Origin: Gemmatimonadota bacterium
GTDB lineage: Bacteria; Gemmatimonadota; Gemmatimonadetes; Palauibacterales; KS3-K002
Length of the DNA: 64,000 nucleotides
Reading direction: 5' to 3'
Assembly: GCA_020344015.1 (NCBI GenBank)
Contig: CP070812.1
Location: 4,738,978 to 4,802,977, forward strand
A program made the position numbers and the translations under genes. Positions 51,692 through 64,000 of this stretch are shown here, piece after piece. The stretch's first letter is position 1. Every line of letters starts with the position of its first letter. The notes beneath the pieces are model-generated. The model was given only the letters and a program-made list of their open reading frames with translations, had not been told where the DNA came from and made no database searches.

Positions 51692-52122
51692 GCACGGGAA
51701 CCGGAACATCACTGCGAGTGTCACGCGTGATCAAGGCGAGCCCGGAGGAGGTCTTCGCTGCGTGGACCCAACCCGAGCACTTGAAGCGCTGGTCGTGTCC
51801 CGAGGGGATGGAGGTCGGCGATGCTCAGGTAGACCTGACTGTGGGAGGCCGCTACCTGATTCGCATGGAGTCGCCGCAAGGGAAGGTGCACACGGCGGTG
51901 GGCGTCTATAGGGAAATCGAGCGACCGAGTCGCCTCGTATACACCTGGGACTGGGAGGAGGAGTCGATCGGCGAGACGATCGTGACGGTGGAGTTCAACG
52001 ATCTCGACGGGTCGACCGAGGTAGTGCTGACCCACGAGCTTTTCCCGAACGCCGAGGCCAAAGTCGGTCACGAGGAGGGTTGGACGAGCTGCCTGGGTCG
52101 TCTGGAGAAACTCTTGGCCTAA
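51688..52122 (+). CDS. SRPBCC/AHSA1-family protein
   Basis: A 144-residue START-like protein of the AHSA1 (activator of Hsp90 ATPase homologue) group. Motifs: VSRVIKASPEEVFAAWTQPE, HLKRWSCPEGMEVG, WDWEEESIGETIVTVEFND, and GWTSCLGRLEKLL at the end. It is thought to bind a small hydrophobic ligand. It overlaps arsR and ends three bases before the convergent barrel gene. A 30-bp piece of it recurs at 52952. Confidence 0.9.
   Translation: MSTGTGTSLRVSRVIKASPEEVFAAWTQPEHLKRWSCPEGMEVGDAQVDLTVGGRYLIRMESPQGKVHTAVGVYREIERPSRLVYTWDWEEESIGETIVTVEFNDLDGSTEVVLTHELFPNAEAKVGHEEGWTSCLGRLEKLLA
51942..51971 (+). repeat. 30-bp direct repeat, copy 1 (within the SRPBCC gene)
   Basis: Codes for TWDWEEESIG. Identical to 52952-52981 except for one base (C/T). 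Confidence 0.9.
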
Positions 52123-52951: not shown

Positions 52952-52981
52952 CACCTGGGATTGGGAGGAGGAGTCGATCGG
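52952..52981 (+). repeat. 30-bp direct repeat, copy 2 (SRPBCC gene remnant)
   Basis: CACCTGGGATTGGGAGGAGG then AGTCGATCGG; 29 of 30 bases match 51942-51971. No further homology to the SRPBCC gene extends on either side. Confidence 0.9.
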
Positions 52982-54151: not shown

Positions 54152-55885
54152 ATGCCTACCAGGGCCGTAAGACGAGGTCTCATCAGTTGTATCAGCTGGT
54201 GCTTTGTGATTCGTCCTTTGCTGATGGGGCCTCTGTTGGCTCAGCTAGAGAAGCCGCGCGATCCAGACTGGAACACCTATCACACGAGCGAGCGGGCTTA
54301 CGCCCTCCTCGAAGGTTGGGCGAGGGAGTTCCCAGGATTGACCAAACTTTACTCGATCGGTGAGACGCTGGCGGGTACGCCGCTTCTGGTCTTGGAGATC
54401 ACCAACAAGGAGACGGGCGAAGCCGGTGAGAAGCCGGGCTACTACTACGACGGCAATATTCACTCGGGCGAGCTGACCGCTGCCGAGGTGGCGCTGCATT
54501 TTGCGTGGTACCTGCTATCCAACTACGGGGAAGATACCCGGGTGACGCGCCTCCTGGACACGAGAACTTTGTACGTTCGTCCCAAGTTCAATCCGGATGG
54601 CGCTGACATCGCGCTCACCACAGAGCAGAACTTGCGTAGCACGCCGCGTCCCTACGACGAGGACGGCGATGGCGCCCTCGACGAAGATCCGGGCAACGAC
54701 CTGGACGGCGATGGCAGTATCACGCAGATGCGGGTGCCGAGCGCGACCGGTCTCTGGAAGGTGAGCGCGGCGGACCGGCGCGTCATGGTGCGACGCGGCG
54801 ACGGCGAGGTGGGGGGTGAGTTTTACGCGCTCTACTCGGAGGGTGTCGATGACGACGGTGACGGCCTGTTCAACGAGGATGGAGTCGGCGGCATCGACAT
54901 GAACCGTAACTTCCCGCGGAACTGGGGGTTGGAATTCGAACAGCGAGGTGCGGGGCCGTTCCCGCTATCGGAGCCTGAGACCCGGGCGACCATCGAGTTC
55001 TTCAGTTCCCATGGTAACATCACCGGTGTCTTCCACGGCCATACGTCCGGTGGGTTCCTCTTTCGTCTCCCGTCCACAACGTCGTGGGACGACTTCAGCC
55101 TCTCCGACCAGAATCTCATCCTCGAGATGTCCCGAAAGTACGAGACCACCACGGGTCAACGGGCAATCCCGAGCTACAGCAACCCGCGGGTCCATCGCTA
55201 CGGTACCCTAATCTCCTGGTCGTACTGGGACTTCGGGGTCGTGGGGTTCGTACCGGAGTTTTGGGGCGGCTTCGGTCGCGACTACGACAGCGACGGCGAA
55301 ATCTCGCAAGCGGAGCGGCACCGCTGGAACGAGGAAGAGCTCTCCGGTGAAGGCTTCGCCGATTGGGCGCCCTACAGCCACCCGCAGCTCGGTCGGGTCG
55401 AGATCGGCGGCTGGCGCTCCAAATTCACCAGGCAGAATCCACCGCCGCATCTGTTGCGAGGCGAACTCGAGTTGTACGTGCCGTGGATGATGTGGCTGGC
55501 CGAGATCAGTCCGCGGATCGTCCTCAGGGATGTCGAGGCTACACGCTTGGGCTCGGGACTGTTCAGAATCACGGGAGTCGTCGAGAACGAAGGGTACCTG
55601 CCGACGAACATTACTCAGCGCGCGCTGGACGCGGAGGTCGCGGTGCCGGTCCGAGTCGTTTTGGAGTTGACTGATGCGGAACTGGTGAGCGGTTCACCGC
55701 GAACCGAGCTCGGTCACCTCTTGGGGAGCCGCGATGCTCAGCGTCAGACGGGGACCGCCGGCGCGCGCCGGACGATCGAATACGTCGTCCGCGTCACAGG
55801 GAGCGACCCGCGCGTCACCATCACTGCAAGGTCCGAGAAGGGTGGGACCGTGCGGCGTGAGGTTCCGCTTGGCGGCGGGGGTTGA
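54152..55885 (+). CDS. Exported M14 zinc carboxypeptidase with calcium-loop inserts
   Basis: A 577-residue metallocarboxypeptidase. A signal sequence (residues ~10-31) is followed by the M14 fold: zinc ligands His104 and Glu107 in DGNIHSGELTAAEV, RPKFNPDGADI, the substrate motif IDMNRNFPRNWG and the third ligand near GVFHGHTSGGF. Acidic repeats DEDGDGALDED, DLDGDGSITQ, DDDGDGLFNEDG and DYDSDGEISQAE look like dockerin/EF-type calcium loops. The last 130 residues form a beta domain. It trims C-terminal residues outside the cytoplasm; the substrate is unknown but it neighbours the capBC genes. Confidence 0.88.
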   Translation: MPTRAVRRGLISCISWCFVIRPLLMGPLLAQLEKPRDPDWNTYHTSERAYALLEGWAREFPGLTKLYSIGETLAGTPLLVLEITNKETGEAGEKPGYYYDGNIHSGELTAAEVALHFAWYLLSNYGEDTRVTRLLDTRTLYVRPKFNPDGADIALTTEQNLRSTPRPYDEDGDGALDEDPGNDLDGDGSITQMRVPSATGLWKVSAADRRVMVRRGDGEVGGEFYALYSEGVDDDGDGLFNEDGVGGIDMNRNFPRNWGLEFEQRGAGPFPLSEPETRATIEFFSSHGNITGVFHGHTSGGFLFRLPSTTSWDDFSLSDQNLILEMSRKYETTTGQRAIPSYSNPRVHRYGTLISWSYWDFGVVGFVPEFWGGFGRDYDSDGEISQAERHRWNEEELSGEGFADWAPYSHPQLGRVEIGGWRSKFTRQNPPPHLLRGELELYVPWMMWLAEISPRIVLRDVEATRLGSGLFRITGVVENEGYLPTNITQRALDAEVAVPVRVVLELTDAELVSGSPRTELGHLLGSRDAQRQTGTAGARRTIEYVVRVTGSDPRVTITARSEKGGTVRREVPLGGGG

Positions 55886-55896
55886 GGGCGTCTTGC

Positions 55897-56067
55897 ACAT
55901 TCGACAACGGACAATCGACTACCGAGTTCGGGCATCTCTTCGGCTAGGGACGCCCGACTCACGACGGTCGGCTATCGGGTGGAGGCGAACGTCGTGCATC
56001 GAGCGTCGGGCGTTGGTAGTCGTGAAACAACTTGGAAGTCGGCAGTCGGCTGTAGGCTGTTGAATGT
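55897..56067. repeat. 171-bp nested imperfect palindrome covering the capB start
   Basis: Outer arms of 33 bases (55897-55929 and 56035-56067, 25 pairs match) enclose ACGCCCGAC/GTCGGGCGT (55950-55958 / 56005-56013, perfect) and ACGACG/CGTCGT (55961-55966 / 55990-55995). All three share nearly the same centre (about 55980). The right arm includes the capB ATG at 56064, which has no ribosome site of its own, so the fold could control translation. Confidence 0.8.
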
Positions 56068-57266
56068 CGAATCCGGTTCCCATGTCTCTGGTCCTATTGC
56101 TCACGCTAGTCGCGATCGGCGCAGTCTTCCTGATCCTCGAGCGCTTTCGTCTCGATCATCATCGCAAGGCTATTCCGCTGACGATCACCGTCACCGGGAC
56201 CCGGGGTAAGACGACCGTGACGCGGCTGCTCGCCTCGGTGCTGCGCGAGAGCGGAGAGCGAGTTCTTGCCAAGACCACTGGGTCGGAGCCGGTTCTGATA
56301 CTGCCGGACGGTACGGAGCGGAAGATTCGGCGGCGCGGGCGCCCGTCGATCATCGAGCAGAAGCATGTCGTGCGTCTGGCTGCGCAGCTGGGCGTGGATG
56401 CGGCGGTCGTCGAGGTCATGAGCATCCACCCGGAGAACCACGTGGTGGAAGCCCGGCAGCTTTTGAAGCCCGACTTGGTCCTCGCCACCAACTTTCGGGT
56501 CGACCACAGCGCGGCGCTGGGTGAGACGCGGGAGGCGGTCGCTGCTGCCCTCGCTCTCGACGTCCCGCGGGGCGCCCGCGCCTTCGTCCCGCAGCGCGAG
56601 TGCCTTCCGGCGTTCCGCGCCGCGGTGCGAGATGGTGGGGGGCAACTGGTCGAGGTGCCGCCGGCTGCCGCGTCGCCGGCGGTGGGAGGATTCGGCGAGA
56701 ACCAGGATCTGGTCTATGCGGCGGCCCGGTCACTGGGCATCGATGATCAGGCAATTCAGGAAGGCATTGATCGGGCCCGTAGCGACATCGGGGCGCTGGG
56801 GATCTGGCGGTATCAGCCGGGAGATGTCGGGGCCCCGTGTTTCCTGGTGAACGCGTTTGCGGCCAACGATCCCGAATCCACCGCCCTCATCCATGAAGAG
56901 GTGATGGCGGCGTTGGACGTAGGCCCGGAACGCTGCGTCGGTCTCCTGAGCCTGCGGCCGGATCGGGGTGACCGGACGCTTCAGTGGGCCAAAGCGCTGC
57001 GCGAAGGCTTCCTCGATCGATTCGACCGCGTCCATGTAATGGGGCTGCACGCGCCGGCCCTAGCCTGGCGACTTGGGCGCTTCGACGAGGCGGTGCGGGT
57101 CAAGGTGCTCCGCGGGACGCGGCCGGCGGAGATTACGAAGACGGCGGCCTCGGGAATCGGGGAGGCCGGCGGTGCCGTGTTCGGGTTCGGGAACATCGGC
57201 GGGGTAGGGGAGGCGCTGGTAGCGCATTGGCGCGAGACGGGAGAGCCCTGGGAGGTCGAGGGCTGA
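56064..57266 (+). CDS. capB: CapB/PgsB-like poly-gamma-glutamate ligase
   Basis: A 400-residue membrane-linked Mur-ligase relative. After an N-terminal membrane helix (8-25) comes the ATP P-loop TVTGTRGKTTVTRLLASV (residues 45-51 core), then VVEVMSIHPENHVVEARQLL, LVLATNFRVDHSAALGET and FLVNAFAANDPESTALI, the typical CapB order. By family it polymerises glutamate through gamma-carboxyl bonds with CapC. No ribosome site is seen; the start overlaps a large palindrome. The stop overlaps capC (TGATG). Confidence 0.93.
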   Translation: MSNPVPMSLVLLLTLVAIGAVFLILERFRLDHHRKAIPLTITVTGTRGKTTVTRLLASVLRESGERVLAKTTGSEPVLILPDGTERKIRRRGRPSIIEQKHVVRLAAQLGVDAAVVEVMSIHPENHVVEARQLLKPDLVLATNFRVDHSAALGETREAVAAALALDVPRGARAFVPQRECLPAFRAAVRDGGGQLVEVPPAAASPAVGGFGENQDLVYAAARSLGIDDQAIQEGIDRARSDIGALGIWRYQPGDVGAPCFLVNAFAANDPESTALIHEEVMAALDVGPERCVGLLSLRPDRGDRTLQWAKALREGFLDRFDRVHVMGLHAPALAWRLGRFDEAVRVKVLRGTRPAEITKTAASGIGEAGGAVFGFGNIGGVGEALVAHWRETGEPWEVEG

Positions 57267-57700
57267 TGGGATTCGAGATTCCGTTCATCGGGCTGCTCAT
57301 CTCGTTGGCCTTCACCGCGCTCACCGGCATCTACCCCGGTGGGATCATCGTACCGAGCTACCTTGTCCTCTTCATGAACGAGCCGGCACGCATCGCCGGT
57401 ACCCTGATCGCGGCTCTCCTGACGATGGCTGTCTACAGACTCTCCTGCCGCTGGCTCATCTTGTTCGGAAGACGTCGATTCGTCTTTCTCATCCTGGTCG
57501 GCGGTATACTGGCATTCCTCTGGCGCGAGCTCTTCCCCGCCATCTTTCCTGTCTCGCTCGAGTTCAGGGTGATCGGCTGGGTGGTCCCGGGACTGATTGC
57601 GAGTCATCTCGAGCGTCAGGGTGTCGTGGTCACGACGGCGGCGCTGGTCACCGTTACGGTGCTGACCGGCTGGATAGGGCTCGTGCTGAATCTGTTGTGA
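57266..57700 (+). CDS. capC: CapC/PgsC-like membrane subunit
   Basis: A 144-residue protein with about four to five membrane helices. The CapC signature TALTGIYPGGIIVPSYLVLF follows the start; VVTTAALVTVTVLTGWIGLV closes it. It forms the membrane part of the polyglutamate synthase with CapB. The ATG overlaps the capB stop. Confidence 0.92.
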   Translation: MGFEIPFIGLLISLAFTALTGIYPGGIIVPSYLVLFMNEPARIAGTLIAALLTMAVYRLSCRWLILFGRRRFVFLILVGGILAFLWRELFPAIFPVSLEFRVIGWVVPGLIASHLERQGVVVTTAALVTVTVLTGWIGLVLNLL

Positions 57701-57707
57701 GGAATCC

Positions 57708-58796
57708 GTGAGACCCGTCCAGCTCATCGATCGCCGATTGAAGTACCGCATCGTCGCGGCGGGGATCGTCAGCCTGCTCGCCTGGTTCCTGTTACAGGCG
57801 ACATCGCAGCGGCCGTCGCTCCCGTGGTCGGAGGAGATGCTCGATGCATCGCAGCGCACGGAGCGAGCCGTCGCGGCGGTGGCGCGCTACCACGTGGCCG
57901 CCGGGACTCCGATCGACGGATCGCTGGACCCCAACCGTACCGGTCTCGTTGGACCGGAATACTCCCCGCTATACACGACGCTGGGCCAGCTGGAGGCGAA
58001 GCGGACGACGACGAATCCTGATGTGGCTGGCCTCGTCGTGCATCTCCTTCGCGGGGCCGGCGTCTCCGCGGGCGACACCATCGCCGTTGGCTGTTCCGCA
58101 TCCTTCCCCGCTCTGATGATCGCGACGGTGACGGCAGCCGAAGCGATGGGTGTTCGTCCGGTGACGATTCTCTCGCTGGGGGCGTCGGCGTACGGAGCCA
58201 CCCGCCCGGAGCTCAACCTGCTCGATATCTATGCGCTGCTGTTGAGCGAAGGCGTTGTGGCCACCGCTCCGGTAGCGGTCTCCTTGGGCGGCGCGGGAGA
58301 TGTGGGCGCGGACTTCGACCCCGCATTCCGCGAGAGGCTGTTGCAGCAGATCGAGATGAGCGACGTCCCCTTGATCTACGAACCCGACCTCCGCGCGAAC
58401 GTGGCCCGACGCATGGCGATCTATCTCGGCGGGCCCGAGGGCCGAGTGACGGCCTTTGTGAACATTGGTGGCGCCGATGCGAACCTCGGTACGAGCCAGC
58501 TGGTGCTCGGGGCCGAGCCGGGCCTTAACACGGAACTCGCTTTGCCGCCGCTGGCGCAGCGTGGTGTGCTGTTCGAGATGGCCGCGCGTGGGGTCCCGGT
58601 GATCCACCTGCTCAACATCCGGGGTCTGGCGCTGCGCTATGGCCTTCCCTGGGACCCCATCCCGCTACCCGCGCCCGGCACCAGCCGGCTGCAGGATGAT
58701 GGGGGGGCGCGGGATCTTCGTTTCTGGCTGATCACCGCTTCGTATTTCGCGAGCCTCGGTCTGATCGCCGTCATCGGCAGGCGCCGGCTCATCTGA
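57708..58796 (+). CDS. pgsW: Poly-gamma-glutamate system protein PgsW
   Basis: A 362-residue protein with one membrane helix near each end (14-31 and 341-357). The intervening domain contains GDTIAVGCSASFPALMIATV, LSLGASAYGATRPELNLLDI and FVNIGGADANLGTSQL, typical of the poly-gamma-glutamate system protein family that accompanies capBC in genomes lacking a Bacillus-type operon. Its activity is not known. GAGGAATCC precedes the GTG start, 7 bases after capC. Confidence 0.88.
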   Translation: MRPVQLIDRRLKYRIVAAGIVSLLAWFLLQATSQRPSLPWSEEMLDASQRTERAVAAVARYHVAAGTPIDGSLDPNRTGLVGPEYSPLYTTLGQLEAKRTTTNPDVAGLVVHLLRGAGVSAGDTIAVGCSASFPALMIATVTAAEAMGVRPVTILSLGASAYGATRPELNLLDIYALLLSEGVVATAPVAVSLGGAGDVGADFDPAFRERLLQQIEMSDVPLIYEPDLRANVARRMAIYLGGPEGRVTAFVNIGGADANLGTSQLVLGAEPGLNTELALPPLAQRGVLFEMAARGVPVIHLLNIRGLALRYGLPWDPIPLPAPGTSRLQDDGGARDLRFWLITASYFASLGLIAVIGRRRLI

Positions 58797-58871
58797 TTGC
58801 AGCACCCCGCAGCATAGGCTAAGATTCGCGACATAGCCCCAACGGCTGGACACCTTGCGGAGGCACGGACA

Positions 58872-59486
58872 ATGAAGCGTTGCGGTCGGTTGGCTGTTGG
58901 GATGGCATCTCTCGCCTGTATGGCCTTGGCGGACGCCGGGGCACTCAGCGCACAGGAAGCGCCGGTGACGGCCGAGCTGCCGGTGCTCCTGACTTCCTGC
59001 GGCCAGAGCCCCGGCCCGGGCCGCGTGCGGTTCTTCCTGAGCAGGCTCGATCTCGAGCACGAGTTCCTCGAGCAGGCCACCGCCCAGGACCTCATCGACA
59101 GAGCCGAAGCGGGAACGCCGTTCGAAACGGTCATCATCGTGACCGGCGCGAGCTTGAAGGGGATGGGCGCGGCTGGCGTCTCCATCCAGGACGAGTTGGA
59201 GCGGACCGCGGCTCTGATCGAAGAGGCCAGGCGCCGGGAGCTCATGCTTATCTGCGCCCACGTCGAGGGCATGGCCCGGCGCGCCCAGGGCGCGGCGCCG
59301 GGCGACAACTCCGACGAGCTGTCGATCGATGCGGTCTGTCCCGCCTCGGACCTGATGATCGTCCGCCAGGACGGAAACGAGGACCGACGCTTCAGCGTCA
59401 TCTCGGAGAGCCAGAGCATCCCGCTCATTCTGTTCGAGAAGAACATGGAGCTGGGCGACGTCCTGACGAGCGTGTTCGCCAGGTAG
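58872..59486 (+). CDS. Exported protein of unknown function
   Basis: A 204-residue protein: signal peptide (MASLACMALADAGALSAQ) and an alpha/beta domain with TAELPVLLTSCGQSPGPGRV, TPFETVIIVTGASLKGMGAA and SIPLILFEKNMELGDVL. It looks like a single Rossmann-like unit and may belong to a DUF associated with such clusters (DUF6305 comes to mind, not verified). GGAGG supports the ATG. Its position between pgsW and the permease suggests an extracytoplasmic binding component. Confidence 0.7.
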   Translation: MKRCGRLAVGMASLACMALADAGALSAQEAPVTAELPVLLTSCGQSPGPGRVRFFLSRLDLEHEFLEQATAQDLIDRAEAGTPFETVIIVTGASLKGMGAAGVSIQDELERTAALIEEARRRELMLICAHVEGMARRAQGAAPGDNSDELSIDAVCPASDLMIVRQDGNEDRRFSVISESQSIPLILFEKNMELGDVLTSVFAR

Positions 59487-59504
59487 AGCTCGGCGCCAGT
59501 CGCG

Positions 59505-59753
59505 ATGACACGTCGAGCGGAGACTGTGGAGTCGGCGGCGGAATCCTGCGAGCGGACGTTGGACCGCGAAGGGAGGGTGCGGCCGAGCCCCGGAGCGGAC
59601 ATTCGGAGCGCCGTTGCCAATCCCAAGTCGTGGCCCGACCCGCGCGACATGAAGCGAGGGGCTCCGGCCGCTCCCGACCACCACCGCGACATGAAGCGAG
59701 GGCCCATCGGCGCGACCGACCCTCACCCCGATAACGAGGACCGCGAGCGGTGA
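59505..59753 (+). CDS. Doubtful 82-residue open frame
   Basis: An open frame ending in GTGA overlap with the permease start. It is rich in Pro, Arg and Asp and contains the element RDMKRG twice (59645 and 59688; the DNA word CGACATGAAGCGAGGG is repeated). There is no ribosome site or homology evidence. Either a small basic protein or a chance frame in a 263-base gap. Confidence 0.25.
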   Translation: MTRRAETVESAAESCERTLDREGRVRPSPGADIRSAVANPKSWPDPRDMKRGAPAAPDHHRDMKRGPIGATDPHPDNEDRER

Positions 59754-61042
59754 GCATGACCGCGTACGCGGGGCTCGTCCTCGCCGTCATGGTCGTCGTC
59801 TACATCGCGGCCAAGCTCTTCAAGCTCTCGACCGAGCTGGCGATGTTCGCGGCGGCGCTCGGTGGAGCGCTGGCCGGCGGCTTCGGCCTGCCTGCACGGC
59901 ACATCGCCGAAGGGGCGATGACCTACCTCGACATCAACCTCATCTTCATCACCGCCACCCTGTTCATGAACATTCTCAAAGAAGCGGGTGGCATCGCGTT
60001 CGTCGTTCGCCGCATCATCGGTCGATTCCACCGCAGTCGGGCCCTGCTGTTCGTGCTGCTGACCGTGCTGCTGCTCGTGCCGGGCGCGCTGACCGGCGCA
60101 GGCAGCGTGACCGTGCTGATCACCGGCGGTTTGGTGGCGATCGTCTTGCAGACGATGGGGATCTCTAGGGTGCGGACCGTCGCCATCGTGTTCATCATCG
60201 CCGGGCTCAGCGCCGCGGCCCCGCCGGTGAGCCTGTGGGCTATGCTCACCGCCGCCGGCGTCAACATGCCGTACATCGGCTTCTTCATGCCGCTACTGGT
60301 GCCCTGCGTGGTGGCGGCGCTGTTCACGATCTTCTTCCTCGGCCGGCGGAGCGGGGAGATCGATCTCGAGAAAGCGCTCCAGGAGCTACCGGCGCCTCCG
60401 CAGGGGATGAGTTGGCTGCGCGTCGCTTTCCCGTTTGTGGTATTCGTGCTGTTGATCGTGATCGGTCGGGTCTGGCCGCACGACACGCCGGTGGTCGGAC
60501 TGCCGCTCATGTTCCTCTGCGCGGCGGCAGCCTCGTACGCGCTCTCACCGATCCGTTTGGATTTCCTGCGGATCTCGCGCGAGACGATCGAACAGCTGCT
60601 GCCCTTGATCGGCACGCTCACCTGCGTGGGAGTCCTGGTCCAGATCATGACGCTCACCGGCGTGAGGGGCCTCTTGGCCGTGACCACGGTCACTTTGTCG
60701 GTGACCCTGGTGTTTGCCACGCTGTTCATCGTGCTTCCGGTCTCGGAGGCCGTCCTGATGTGGGGTGCGGCGCCGGTGATCGGCGTCCCCCTCGTTCTGC
60801 TTTTCAACACGATGGGCCTCAACCCGATCGTGGCGTTGGCGGGAATGAGCGTCATCTGGCCCTTGGGCGACGCGCTGCCCCCGACGGCGATCATCGGACG
60901 GTTGACCGTGGATGTGGTGGGGTACAAAGACGCTTATACGAGATTCTTGAAGAGCTGTATCGTCCCGGCCGTGTTCATCATGATCATCGGGACGCTGATG
61001 GTGATCTTCTCGAGCGAACTCTCGTTCCTGACCGGGCTGTAA
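59750..61042 (+). CDS. DctM/TRAP-type large permease
   Basis: A 430-residue inner-membrane protein with about 11-12 helices, ion-transporter superfamily. Glycine-rich re-entrant loops GALTGAGSVTVLITGGLV and GMSVIWPLGDALPPTAI mark the TRAP large-subunit-like fold. The usual DctQ small subunit and DctP binding protein are absent. GAGGA lies 9 bases before the GTG start. It may carry a dicarboxylate or N-acyl amino acid; the upstream exported protein and downstream small protein could be unusual partners. Confidence 0.8.
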   Translation: MSMTAYAGLVLAVMVVVYIAAKLFKLSTELAMFAAALGGALAGGFGLPARHIAEGAMTYLDINLIFITATLFMNILKEAGGIAFVVRRIIGRFHRSRALLFVLLTVLLLVPGALTGAGSVTVLITGGLVAIVLQTMGISRVRTVAIVFIIAGLSAAAPPVSLWAMLTAAGVNMPYIGFFMPLLVPCVVAALFTIFFLGRRSGEIDLEKALQELPAPPQGMSWLRVAFPFVVFVLLIVIGRVWPHDTPVVGLPLMFLCAAAASYALSPIRLDFLRISRETIEQLLPLIGTLTCVGVLVQIMTLTGVRGLLAVTTVTLSVTLVFATLFIVLPVSEAVLMWGAAPVIGVPLVLLFNTMGLNPIVALAGMSVIWPLGDALPPTAIIGRLTVDVVGYKDAYTRFLKSCIVPAVFIMIIGTLMVIFSSELSFLTGL

Positions 61043-61054
61043 GGTAGGAGAGTC

Positions 61055-61219
61055 ATGGCTATTCTGCAGACGCTTATCACGGTGCTCTACTACGGATTGA
61101 TCGCCTATGTGGCCGTGATCTTGATTTGGAACTTCAGCAAGACGCGGAAGTGGGAGCAGGAGGTACTCTACATCATCGTCCTCATCCCATTCCTACTGCG
61201 TCTGTTCAGGTTGAAGTGA
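61055..61219 (+). CDS. 54-residue membrane protein
   Basis: A small gene: ATG after AGGTAGGAG, one long membrane helix (LYYGLIAYVAVILIWNF), a basic loop (SKTRKWEQE) and a second hydrophobic stretch (VLYIIVLIPFLLRLF). It fits tightly between the permease (12 bases) and the next gene (1 base), so it is probably real and co-translated. It may be a small subunit of the permease or a counterpart of the tiny CapE/PgsE proteins of polyglutamate systems; both are inference. Confidence 0.78.
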   Translation: MAILQTLITVLYYGLIAYVAVILIWNFSKTRKWEQEVLYIIVLIPFLLRLFRLK

Positions 61220-61220
61220 C

Positions 61221-62417
61221 GTGACGGTCGCGGGAAACGGCTCCGAGAATCGCGGCGGCGGCGCGCCCCTGGTCCGTAAGCTCGTGCTCGGCGCCCTGGG
61301 GGTGCTGCTCCTCGTCACCTCCGGCCTCAGCTTCTACCGACACCGGCACCTGGAGGAGCCGGTGGTTCTGAGCGACGGTGTGACTGAGGTGAAGAAGCTG
61401 AGCGATTACTTCGACGGCATCCGCGGCACGGTGAACGACTGCAACGTCTACTTTTTCGAGGGCGCCGAGCCGGGCGCCACCATGTTCGTCATGGGTGGTA
61501 CGCACCCGGAGGAGCCGGCGGCGCGCCTGGCCGCCTGGCTCATCGCCGAGAACGCCGTGATGGAGCAAGGGCGGCTGATCGTCGTGCTGAGCGGGAACCG
61601 CAGCGCTACCACTGTCACGCGCCTGGGCGGGGCCTATCCCCCGGATTTTGCGATCCCCACCGATTGGGGGGCGCAGACCTTCCGGCTGGGTGACCGCTGG
61701 TCGAACCCGCTGGATCAGTGGCCCGATCCCGAGGTCTACATCCATTACCCCAGCCGGCAGTACCTGGCCTACGTGGATGCCCGCAACCTTAACCGGACGT
61801 GGCCCGGCAGGCCCGACGGCACGCTCACCGAGCGAACGACCTATGCTTTGCTGGAGCTCATCCGCCGGGAGAACGTGGACATCTTCATCGATCTCCACGA
61901 GGCGGAGCTACAGTATCCGGTGATCAGTACAATAGTCACTCACGAGCGAGGAGAAGAACTCGCCATTTTCGTCTCGATGATGTTGAGCGATGAAGAGTTC
62001 AACATCGGCACGGAGTATTCGCCGAAGAACCTGCACGGTCTCTCGCATCGCGAGGTCGGCGATGCGTCGCAGGCGATCTCGCTCTTGTTCGAGGCGCCCG
62101 AACCTTTCCTCGATGCCACGCGCGGCCGCACGACCCGTGAACAGCTGCTGACCGGCATCGACGAGTTCGTGATGAAAGCAGGCGAGCATGGGCTCCTGTT
62201 CGAGCATATAGATGAGAGCGGTTGGCCGATCGACGTCAGGGTAGGGCGTCATACCTCTACTGTGCTGCAAACCATGGAGGCGTGGACAGAGCTATACCCC
62301 GACCGGCCCTTGAGTTGCCGGGGCGTTCCGCGTTACGCTGAAGTGATCGCGGAAGGTCTCGGACACTGGTTGCACGATCCGTCCGAAGCTGCACCCGGGC
62401 GGCTAGTGACCGAATAG
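61221..62417 (+). CDS. Succinylglutamate desuccinylase/aspartoacylase-family hydrolase
   Basis: A 398-residue zinc hydrolase with an N-terminal membrane anchor (20-38) facing the periplasm. The zinc site is His95 and Glu98 in MGGTHPEEPAARLAAW; DARNLNRTWPG provides the substrate Arg/Asn and FIDLHEAELQYPVIS the third metal ligand and catalytic region. By family it removes an acyl group from N-acyl-glutamate or N-acyl-aspartate. GTG start 1 base after the small membrane protein. Confidence 0.87.
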   Translation: MTVAGNGSENRGGGAPLVRKLVLGALGVLLLVTSGLSFYRHRHLEEPVVLSDGVTEVKKLSDYFDGIRGTVNDCNVYFFEGAEPGATMFVMGGTHPEEPAARLAAWLIAENAVMEQGRLIVVLSGNRSATTVTRLGGAYPPDFAIPTDWGAQTFRLGDRWSNPLDQWPDPEVYIHYPSRQYLAYVDARNLNRTWPGRPDGTLTERTTYALLELIRRENVDIFIDLHEAELQYPVISTIVTHERGEELAIFVSMMLSDEEFNIGTEYSPKNLHGLSHREVGDASQAISLLFEAPEPFLDATRGRTTREQLLTGIDEFVMKAGEHGLLFEHIDESGWPIDVRVGRHTSTVLQTMEAWTELYPDRPLSCRGVPRYAEVIAEGLGHWLHDPSEAAPGRLVTE

Positions 62418-62441
62418 TCATAGCAAGGAAGGAGCGATCCC

Positions 62442-64000
62442 GTGAAACGAGCTACCTTGAGGAGCTACTGGATCCTCGGATTCGTCGTCGCCGTCGCCGT
62501 CGGCGCGAACACCGCCGCGGCGCAGTCGTTGGACGCGCTGCCGATCGGCGCCCAGTGCAGCGATTCGCCGGAGGATCCCGGCTGCGGGTGCAATCCCGAA
62601 TTCCAGGATTGCGGCTGTACCAGCATCCAGGTGGGGAAGCGCGCGTCCACCGATGGCTCGGTGATGACCGCTCATAGTTGCGACGGCAACTACCGCACCT
62701 GGCTGCAGATCGAGCCCCGCAGAGTGAATCCGCCGGGAACCCGAAGGCCGATCTACTGGGGCCTCCTGCATACCGAGACGCCCGACGACATGCGCAGGGT
62801 TCGGCTCAAGGGAGAGATCCCCGACGTGCCGGAGACCTACCGCTACTTCAACGTCGCCTACCCGGCGATGAACGAGAAGGGACTGTCGATCGGTGAAACG
62901 ACGATCGGCGGTCGGTCCGACCTGCGGAACGACGAGGGGCTATTCCTGATCGAGAACCTCCAGGCGATCGCGCTCGAGCGGACCACCAACGCCCGCGACG
63001 CGATCCAGCTGGTCGGCGAACTCGTGAAGGAGTACGGCTACGGCGACTATGGGGAGTGCCTGACCTTCGCCGACTCGAAGGAGGTCTGGCACTTCGAGAT
63101 CATGGGCGCCGGGCCCATCGAGATCGGCGCCGTCTGGGCGGCGGTCCGGATCCCCGACGACCACGTCGGGGTCTCGGCCAACATCCCGCGAATCAGCACC
63201 CTCGACCTCGACGACTCGGACAACTACATGGCCAGCGAGAACGTCCACTCAGTGGCCGAGGAGATGGGCTGGTGGGATCCGGATAGCGGCGAGGAGTTCA
63301 AGTGGTGGAAGGCGTACGGTAGAACCGATCGGGAGGGGAACCCGGCACCGCCCTTCTCGACCCGCGAGTTCTACATCCTCAGCACGCTCGCCCCTTCGTT
63401 GAACCTCACCATGGACATGGAGGAGCTGCCCTTCTCGGTAAAGCCCGACGAGAAGGTCTCGGTCCAGGATGTCATGCGGTACTACCGCGAGACCTACGAG
63501 GGCAGCGAGCTCGACCCGACCCGTAACCTCATGGTGCCCTACCGTCCGCGCCGCGGTGAGAGTCGTCCCGACCAACCCGAGATGGTCAAGAGCCCGATCG
63601 TCAACAACTGGTCGATCAGCGACATGGCGGAGCTCTTGAATTCGATTCAGCCGGGCATCGTGCAGCCGGTTCGCACCATCGCCGTCGCCCGCTGCTCCTA
63701 CTCGCAGATCATCCAGAACCGCGATTGGCTGCCGCCGGAGATCGGGACCATCGCGTGGTTCTCGTTCGACAACCCGGGCCAGAGTCCGCGGATTCCCATC
63801 TGGGCCGGCGTGACCGAGCTGCCCGAGGCATTCAAGATCGGCTGCCAGAAGTCGTACCGAACCGACTCCGCCTGCTGGTGGTACCGGCGGGCCAACCGGC
63901 TGGCGATGATCAAGTGGGGCTGGGCCCGGCAGTACCTGGAAGCCGCCGTCCAGGACTACGAGATCCAGGCCTTCGATGAGGTGCCGCTCATCGAGGGGCG
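62442..64000 (+). CDS. Secreted C69-family dipeptidase (3'-truncated by window edge)
   Basis: At least 519 residues and open to the window end. A GTG start after AAGGAAGGAG begins a signal peptide (ILGFVVAVAVGANTAAAQ). A Cys-rich propeptide (GCGCNPEFQDCGC) ends at Cys59 in CTSIQVGKRASTDGSVMTAH, the expected autocatalytic N-terminal nucleophile of PepD-type Ntn hydrolases. GLSIGETTIGGRSDL and FADSKEVWHFEIMGAGP are further family motifs. It would split dipeptides outside the cytoplasm and may recycle glutamyl peptides from the cluster. Confidence 0.9.
   Translation, partial: MKRATLRSYWILGFVVAVAVGANTAAAQSLDALPIGAQCSDSPEDPGCGCNPEFQDCGCTSIQVGKRASTDGSVMTAHSCDGNYRTWLQIEPRRVNPPGTRRPIYWGLLHTETPDDMRRVRLKGEIPDVPETYRYFNVAYPAMNEKGLSIGETTIGGRSDLRNDEGLFLIENLQAIALERTTNARDAIQLVGELVKEYGYGDYGECLTFADSKEVWHFEIMGAGPIEIGAVWAAVRIPDDHVGVSANIPRISTLDLDDSDNYMASENVHSVAEEMGWWDPDSGEEFKWWKAYGRTDREGNPAPPFSTREFYILSTLAPSLNLTMDMEELPFSVKPDEKVSVQDVMRYYRETYEGSELDPTRNLMVPYRPRRGESRPDQPEMVKSPIVNNWSISDMAELLNSIQPGIVQPVRTIAVARCSYSQIIQNRDWLPPEIGTIAWFSFDNPGQSPRIPIWAGVTELPEAFKIGCQKSYRTDSACWWYRRANRLAMIKWGWARQYLEAAVQDYEIQAFDEVPLIEG

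What the first reader, a model, noticed from the sequence alone, without database searches (positions are those of the whole stretch)
56064..64000. capBC-pgsW cluster combined with permease, small membrane protein, deacylase and dipeptidase
capB, capC and pgsW are unmistakable, but capA/PgsA (export) and a CapD/PgdS-type hydrolase are missing. The genes that follow on the same strand with tight spacing are a signal-bearing unknown protein, an orphan DctM-like permease, a 54-residue membrane protein, an AstE/aspartoacylase-like zinc hydrolase and a C69 dipeptidase; an M14 carboxypeptidase precedes them. A coherent reading is a pathway that makes a glutamyl polymer or gamma-glutamyl peptide, moves it or its products with a non-canonical TRAP-like carrier, and degrades it outside the cell. 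That combination is, to my knowledge, undescribed.
Basis: partly seen in the sequence, partly recalled or inferred. Interest (0 to 1): 0.85.

Follow-up and report, generated by a model that had tools for sequence, protein, structure and literature searches.

The report
Glutamyl-polymer genes linked to transporter cassette
Genes that normally make a chain of glutamate units are tied, in bacteria of many phyla, to a fixed and apparently undescribed set of genes for an unclassified membrane carrier, two accessory proteins and outside-the-membrane cutting enzymes, which points to one system that builds, cuts and probably takes back glutamyl material.

Summary
The window holds PgsB, PgsC, PgsW, DUF6305, an unclassified DctM/DcuC-like permease, a 54-aa two-helix protein, an AstE-like zinc hydrolase and a C69 hydrolase on one strand. 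The block is collinear in all four phylum genomes with PgsW over the family cut-off; the upstream M14 gene is not part of it there. DUF6305-permease-54aa-AstE is a rigid cassette in at least nine phyla: 76 of 82 permeases have all three partners close by. In 926 genomes of four phyla, PgsW occurs in 88, the permease in 85, both in 77. A secreted Ntn hydrolase joins the cassette: C69 in one permease lineage, gamma-glutamyltransferase (GGT) in the other. A cultured bacterium, Cetobacterium somerae, carries ggt-DUF6305-permease-47aa-AstE-pgsBCW in one run. Best reading: PgsBCW makes and exports gamma-glutamyl chains, envelope hydrolases cut them, and a three-part secondary carrier moves a small product, probably glutamate, inward. 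That it is one functional system is strongly supported; substrate, direction and carrier architecture are inferred. I found no earlier description in the held library. New variant of a known kind.

The parts
56064..57266 (+). pgsB/capB, Mur-ligase-type amide ligase, 400 aa, one N-terminal membrane helix
   Evidence: TIGR04012 228.8 bits over cut-off 222.7; conserved GTRGK motif
57266..57700 (+). pgsC/capC, 144 aa membrane protein; overlaps the pgsB stop by 1 nt
   Evidence: TIGR04011 114.1 over 96.45; PF14102 113.9 over 27
57708..58796 (+). pgsW, 362 aa; membrane helix at each end, domain between them probably outside
   Evidence: TIGR04332 309.4 over 100; AF2 pLDDT 85.8, no confident PDB fold match
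58872..59486 (+). DUF6305 protein, 204 aa, signal sequence, small alpha/beta fold
   Evidence: PF19823 142.8 over 25; AF2 pLDDT 88.4; invariant or nearly invariant T41, G44, Q45, S94, K96, G97, G99, E108, R111, G133, D171, F174 over 86 divergent copies
59750..61042 (+). unclassified permease of the DctM/DcuC/CitMHS kind, 430 aa
   Evidence: sub-threshold DctM/CitMHS/DcuC matches; no PDB sequence relative; most conserved protein of the set
61055..61219 (+). 54-aa protein with two membrane helices, next to the permease in every cassette class
   Evidence: in no Pfam, NCBIfam or PHROG family above cut-off
61221..62417 (+). AstE/aspartoacylase-like zinc hydrolase, 398 aa, N-terminal anchor, probably faces outside
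   Evidence: PF24827 26.1 over 25; invariant H95-x-x-E98, H226, RNxNR 188-192, E291; PDB relatives are AstE/DoeB-type deacylases
62442..64000 (+). C69 (Ntn) hydrolase with signal sequence; continues to about 64154
   Evidence: PF03577 199.9 over 23; full ORF 570 aa in L007 7420-9132

Best explanation
The block is one functional system of two modules. Module 1, PgsB-PgsC-PgsW: PgsB uses ATP to join glutamate (probably into gamma-linked chains), PgsC is its membrane partner, and PgsW, anchored in the membrane with its domain outside, takes the place that PgsA/CapA has in Bacillus. Module 2, DUF6305-permease-54aa-AstE plus an Ntn hydrolase (C69 here, GGT in a sister lineage): the hydrolases outside the inner membrane cut gamma-glutamyl or N-acyl-amino-acid amide bonds; DUF6305 binds or delivers the freed small product; the permease, with the 54-aa protein as its small membrane subunit, carries it across the inner membrane as a secondary transporter. 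Net effect: glutamate is laid down outside as gamma-glutamyl material and recovered, or gamma-glutamyl/N-acyl compounds are processed and their dicarboxylic part taken up. SHOWN: gene families, collinearity, cassette rigidity, genome-level co-occurrence, the hydrolase swap that follows permease lineage. INFERRED: gamma-glutamyl product, exported topology of the hydrolases, three-part carrier, substrate (glutamate or similar dicarboxylate) and inward direction.
For: Eight-gene block collinear in all 4 phylum genomes with PgsW over cut-off, about 50-90% identity. DUF6305 scan: 43 loci from at least nine phyla; PgsW next to the cassette in 26, elsewhere in the genome in 13 of the other 17. Co-occurrence: Synergistota PgsW 58, permease 58, both 53 of 151; Acidobacteriota 13, 14, 13 of 199; Gemmatimonadota 4, 5, 4 of 249; Bacteroidota 13, 8, 7 of 327. 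76 of 82 permeases have DUF6305, 54aa and AstE on the same strand within 6.5 kb. Hydrolase: C69 at 39, GGT at 24; the GGT label needs 2 changes on the permease tree against 21.0 in shuffles. GGT confirmed by PF01019, 563 and 526 bits; placed between AstE and PgsB in most Synergistota loci of that type. Cetobacterium somerae plasmid p1 carries ggt-DUF6305-permease-47aa-AstE-pgsB-pgsC-pgsW. Secreted GGT removes single units from gamma-PGA in B. subtilis, and CapD is GGT-family (PMC4497714); Fusobacterium nucleatum makes polyglutamate (Candela 2009 cited in PMC3815933).
Against: No product was measured anywhere in this set. One genome (G323) has five cassettes but only two PgsW loci, with different hydrolases, which a single-polymer recycling system would not need. 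C69 and the M28/M14/M24 peptidases near some cassettes also fit general peptide use. One cassette carries a malonate decarboxylase subunit (L151), so substrates may differ between cassettes. In Francisella, whose CapA is annotated as a PgsW-type protein, capB and capC were not needed for capsule (PMC4688374). DUF6305 is small for a solute-binding protein and has no fold match that shows a function.
Confidence: 0.45

Rival explanations
1. Scavenging: the cassette is an uptake route for peptides, gamma-glutamyl peptides or N-acyl amino acids from the environment; the secreted hydrolases free an amino or dicarboxylic acid that the carrier imports. PgsBCW makes a gamma-glutamyl product with a separate but life-style-linked use (glutamate sink, counter-ion, surface layer).
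For: Several cassettes with different hydrolases per genome; M28, M14 and M24 exopeptidases beside some cassettes; malonate decarboxylase subunit in one; carrier similarity to dicarboxylate carriers.
Against: Does not explain why PgsBCW is so often in the same run of genes, or why a second PgsW closes some cassettes (L112, L131-L133), or why cassettes are almost never in genomes without PgsW (77 of 85 have it).
Confidence: 0.3
2. Bacterial gamma-glutamyl cycle: PgsBC makes short gamma-glutamyl chains or conjugates, not a polymer; the Ntn hydrolase moves or removes gamma-glutamyl groups outside and the carrier imports the products.
For: GGT is a transferase as well as a hydrolase (general knowledge); one PgsBCW can serve several cassettes; no PgsA/CapA in the block.
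Against: PgsB and PgsC pass the curated cut-offs for poly-gamma-glutamate synthesis; no conjugate is known; PGA can be made without pgsA in recombinant B. subtilis (title of PMC6029982; paper not read).
Confidence: 0.15
3. Ordinary PGA capsule operon in which the permease or PgsW exports the polymer and the hydrolases only trim or anchor it (CapD-like).
For: GGT-family CapD anchors PGA in B. anthracis (PMC4497714).
Against: Permeases of this kind carry small molecules (general knowledge of the families); many cassettes in multi-cassette genomes lie away from PgsBCW.
Confidence: 0.07
4. Unrelated neighbours read as one block by chance.
For: 263-nt gap before the permease in this genome.
Against: All conservation and co-occurrence results above.
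Confidence: 0.02

Closest known systems
Bacillus PgsBCA(E)/CapBCADE poly-gamma-glutamate systems
   Same: PgsB and PgsC over the curated cut-offs; GGT-family hydrolase (CapD) beside the synthase, as in the sister lineage here
   Different: PgsW in place of PgsA; C69 in this window; fixed DUF6305-permease-54aa-AstE cassette, which Bacillus is not known to have (DUF6305 and PgsW absent from all 14 control genomes, B. subtilis among them)
Francisella capBCA locus
   Same: third protein annotated 'poly-gamma-glutamate system protein', i.e. PgsW-type (PMC5362203)
   Different: described as a three-gene locus, not a capsule gene set (PMC4688374); cassette not reported; Francisella genomes were not searched here
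TRAP and tripartite tricarboxylate (TTT) transporters
   Same: one exported soluble protein, one small membrane protein and one large DctM-like membrane protein encoded together
   Different: the soluble and small proteins match no DctP/DctQ/TctC/TctB family; permease below the family cut-offs; extra linked hydrolases
AstE/AspA/DoeB zinc deacylases
   Same: conserved zinc ligands and carboxylate-binding motif
   Different: only about 25-30 bits to solved members, membrane anchor, always beside the permease

Membership tests
PgsBCA-type poly-gamma-glutamate synthase | PgsB and PgsC | tested here: met
   TIGR04012 and TIGR04011 over cut-off
PgsBCA-type poly-gamma-glutamate synthase | PgsA/CapA (PF09587) in the operon | tested here: not met
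   no PF09587 in the block; four copies elsewhere in the genome; five of 21 cassette genomes have no match
PgsBCA-type poly-gamma-glutamate synthase | makes poly-gamma-glutamate | not testable with these tools
   needs chemistry
PgsBCA-type poly-gamma-glutamate synthase | PgsE/CapE small protein | tested here: inconclusive
   no family match; the 54-aa protein goes with the permease also in cassettes far from PgsBC, so it is unlikely to be PgsE
TIGR04332 poly-gamma-glutamate system protein (PgsW) | score over 100 bits | tested here: met
   309.4 bits
TRAP transporter | DctM large subunit over the family cut-off | tested here: not met
   window protein: no DctM match up to E 1; 21 of 35 relatives match weakly, best 5.1e-7
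TRAP transporter | DctP binding protein and DctQ small subunit | tested here: not met
   DUF6305 and the 54-aa protein match neither
AstE/aspartoacylase family | family cut-off and HxxE...H zinc site | tested here: met
   PF24827 26.1 over 25; H95, E98, H226 invariant in 31 rows
AstE/aspartoacylase family | cuts an N-acyl amino acid | not testable with these tools
   needs an assay
Peptidase family C69 | family cut-off | tested here: met
   PF03577 199.9 over 23; NCBI C69 dipeptidase equivalog not reached with the window's 519 residues, 187.6 vs 250
Gamma-PGA hydrolases GGT/CapD, PgdS, PghP | such a hydrolase in the block | tested here: not met
   none by Pfam in the window's block; GGT present in the sister-lineage cassettes

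The most novel reading that the evidence does not exclude
DUF6305, the permease and the two-helix protein form a new kind of three-part secondary carrier, unrelated in its soluble and small subunits to TRAP and TTT, which works in series with linked secreted amide hydrolases of the C69 or GGT kind and depends on a PgsBCW gamma-glutamyl ligase: a bacterial gamma-glutamyl cycle spread over many phyla.
Probability: 0.2. Interest if true: 0.88.

Novelty: new variant of a known kind. Interest (0 to 1): 0.72.

Why it matters
It gives a coherent candidate function to DUF6305, to the orphan permease and to an unannotated 54-aa protein, and a genomic partner set to PgsW, none with a role described in the held library. 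It offers a testable context for PgsBC genes outside Bacillus, where the product is often unknown, and names a cultured organism in which to test it. If the three-part carrier reading holds, it would be a further solution to the problem that TRAP and TTT carriers solve.

Tried and rejected
M14 carboxypeptidase as part of the system: not beside the block in the three relatives, though M14 genes lie farther off in some Bacteroidota and Aminicenantes loci. DUF6305 as a cysteine enzyme: C43 is lost in divergent copies (read in L151). DUF6305 and PgsW as relatives: profile comparison probability 0.4%. Fold identification of PgsW and DUF6305: no convincing PDB match. PDB sequence search for permease, PgsW and DUF6305: nothing usable. 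A terminator splitting the block: none found at 58796-59750. DUF6305 as a partner of PgsW only: it goes with the permease also where PgsW is far away. Literature on PgsW or DUF6305: nothing relevant in the held library. PgsW on other plasmids: only the Cetobacterium record.
Full report
THE OBSERVATION. The window is bases 4738978-4802977 of a 4.8 Mb single-contig genome. Eight genes on the + strand follow closely: pgsB, pgsC, pgsW, a DUF6305 gene, a permease, a 54-aa membrane protein, an AstE-like zinc hydrolase and a C69 hydrolase that runs about 154 bases past the window end. The first three pass NCBI's curated cut-offs. Gaps are -1, 7, 75, 263, 12, 1 and 24 nt. Downstream, the next large ORF, with lytic-transglycosylase-like sequence, is on the other strand (my reading, not family-tested).

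CONSERVATION IN THE PHYLUM. PgsW occurs over its cut-off in only 4 of 249 genomes drawn from the phylum, the window's own included. In all four the eight genes are collinear, at about 50-90% identity, while the upstream M14 gene is not there in the three relatives. The permease occurs in 5 of the 249, four of them the same genomes. Named records whose loci correspond to the three relatives are titled Gemmatimonadota, Longimicrobiales and Gemmatimonadales.

A CASSETTE ACROSS PHYLA. One scan of GTDB species genomes with the DUF6305 alignment gave 43 loci whose titles name Gemmatimonadota, Bacteroidota, Acidobacteriota, Aminicenantes, Latescibacterota, KSB1, NC10, Deferribacteres, Bacillota/Halanaerobiales and Synergistaceae. 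With Fusobacteriota that is at least nine phyla, the exact number depending on the taxonomy used. DUF6305, permease, 54aa and AstE lie together in nearly all that are long enough. PgsW is next to them in 26; of the other 17 genomes, 13 have PgsW elsewhere. All but a few of these genomes are MAGs, so absences are weak evidence. These loci were found by DUF6305, so they do not by themselves measure how often the cassette is linked.

UNBIASED CO-OCCURRENCE. PgsW (TIGR04332) and the permease profile were searched independently in evenly drawn genomes. Synergistota 151: 58, 58, both 53. Acidobacteriota 199: 13, 14, both 13. Gemmatimonadota 249: 4, 5, both 4. Bacteroidota 327: 13, 8, both 7. Fisher p-values are 8e-29, 2e-19, 3e-8 and 2e-10. 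They ignore shared ancestry and include the centre genomes, so they are indicative; but PgsW and permease also lie within 10 kb in 40 of 76 Synergistota PgsW places and in all seven shared Bacteroidota genomes. The dependence is unequal: 77 of 85 permease genomes have PgsW, and 77 of 88 PgsW genomes have the permease, six of the exceptions being Bacteroidota with PgsW but no permease at the limit used.

CASSETTE RIGIDITY AND HYDROLASE SWAP. Of 82 permease genes in the loci read, 76 have DUF6305, 54aa and AstE on the same strand within 6.5 kb; the exceptions lie at contig or fragment ends, have a distant DUF6305, or have a 54-aa gene too short or divergent for the search (L111 and L112 overlap, so one gene is counted twice). 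An Ntn hydrolase is present in 63: C69 in 39, GGT in 24. On a permease tree the GGT label needs 2 changes against 21.0 in shuffled labels, so the hydrolase follows the permease lineage (a quick tree with some very long branches, so only the broad split should be trusted). In most Synergistota loci of the GGT type the order is DUF6305-permease-54aa-AstE-GGT-PgsB-PgsC-PgsW. GGT was confirmed with PF01019 in two of them. One genome has five cassettes and two PgsW loci (L151-L157).

A CULTURED EXAMPLE. Cetobacterium somerae plasmid p1 (NZ_CP143320.1) carries a kinase-like and response-regulator pair, ggt, DUF6305, 'TRAP transporter large permease subunit', a 47-aa hypothetical protein, 'succinylglutamate desuccinylase', pgsB, pgsC and pgsW in one direction with short gaps. 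My own profiles recognise every cassette and Pgs part.

WHAT THE PROTEINS SUGGEST. The permease reaches no family cut-off; its weak matches are DctM, CitMHS and DcuC, all carriers of di- or tricarboxylates, which makes glutamate or a similar acid a fair guess. The AstE-like protein keeps the zinc site and the carboxylate-binding motif. DUF6305 keeps T41, Q45, S94, K96, E108, R111 and D171 over 86 divergent copies, a set that would suit binding of a small charged ligand (inference). PgsW has a helix at each end and a well-predicted domain without a convincing fold relative. Exported positions are inferred from N-terminal helices and signal sequences.

MECHANISM. The GGT swap is the best clue to chemistry: B. 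subtilis GGT is secreted and removes single units from gamma-PGA, and CapD is of the same family (PMC4497714). I therefore think most likely that PgsBCW makes and exports gamma-glutamyl chains, the hydrolases cut them outside, and the DUF6305/permease/54aa set takes the product up. Against a pure recycling view stand the genomes with several cassettes, the exopeptidases beside some of them and one cassette with a malonate decarboxylase subunit; these favour a broader scavenging role for the cassette. The two are not separable by sequence.

COMPARISON WITH WHAT IS KNOWN. PgsBC is known from Bacillus; PgsW has only an annotation name. Francisella CapA carries the same annotation (PMC5362203), and there capB and capC were found not to be involved in capsule (PMC4688374). 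Fusobacterium nucleatum is reported to make polyglutamate (Candela 2009 cited in PMC3815933); whether it has the cassette was not testable here. The set works like a three-part carrier but is not a TRAP member by the tests made. Full-text searches found no description of the combination; subscription journals are mostly outside that library.

VERDICT. One conserved system, strongly supported (about 0.93 as a linked functional unit). The mechanism above has about 0.45. New variant of a known kind.

Noticed in passing
window 59638-59721: Two tandem 42-nt copies (76% alike) in the DUF6305-permease gap, which is much longer here than in relatives; probably a lineage-specific expansion.
   Followed up: partly
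window 51942-51971 and 52952-52981: A 30-nt sequence repeated at 97% identity 1010 bases apart, the first copy inside a gene that looks like an AHSA1-type protein.
   Followed up: no
L112 8174-9157; L131 3665-4633; L132 9101-10063; L133 12843-13841: A PgsW copy closes one class of cassette after C69, in two of the loci in addition to a PgsW next to PgsBC.
   Followed up: partly
L151 7603-9330: Malonate decarboxylase alpha subunit (PF16957, 911 bits) lies between DUF6305 and the permease in one cassette; hints that some cassettes handle malonate or N-malonyl compounds.
   Followed up: partly
L111 1429-3406, L117 14190-16289, L160 4635-6607, L162 7505-9407: Histidine kinase (PF02518/PF00512 in three, annotation in L162) with a response-regulator-like gene beside GGT-type cassettes, a possible shared regulator.
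   Followed up: partly
L042, L045, L048, L049, L050: Aminicenantes-type loci also carry H+-pyrophosphatase, M28, M24 and M14 genes around the cassette in a conserved arrangement.
   Followed up: partly
window 54152-55885: M14 carboxypeptidase with signal sequence upstream of pgsB; not conserved beside the block in the three relatives.
   Followed up: yes
L042 12848-13456 and five similar loci: About 200-aa unclassified protein with N-terminal membrane helices just upstream of the permease in Aminicenantes-type loci.
   Followed up: no
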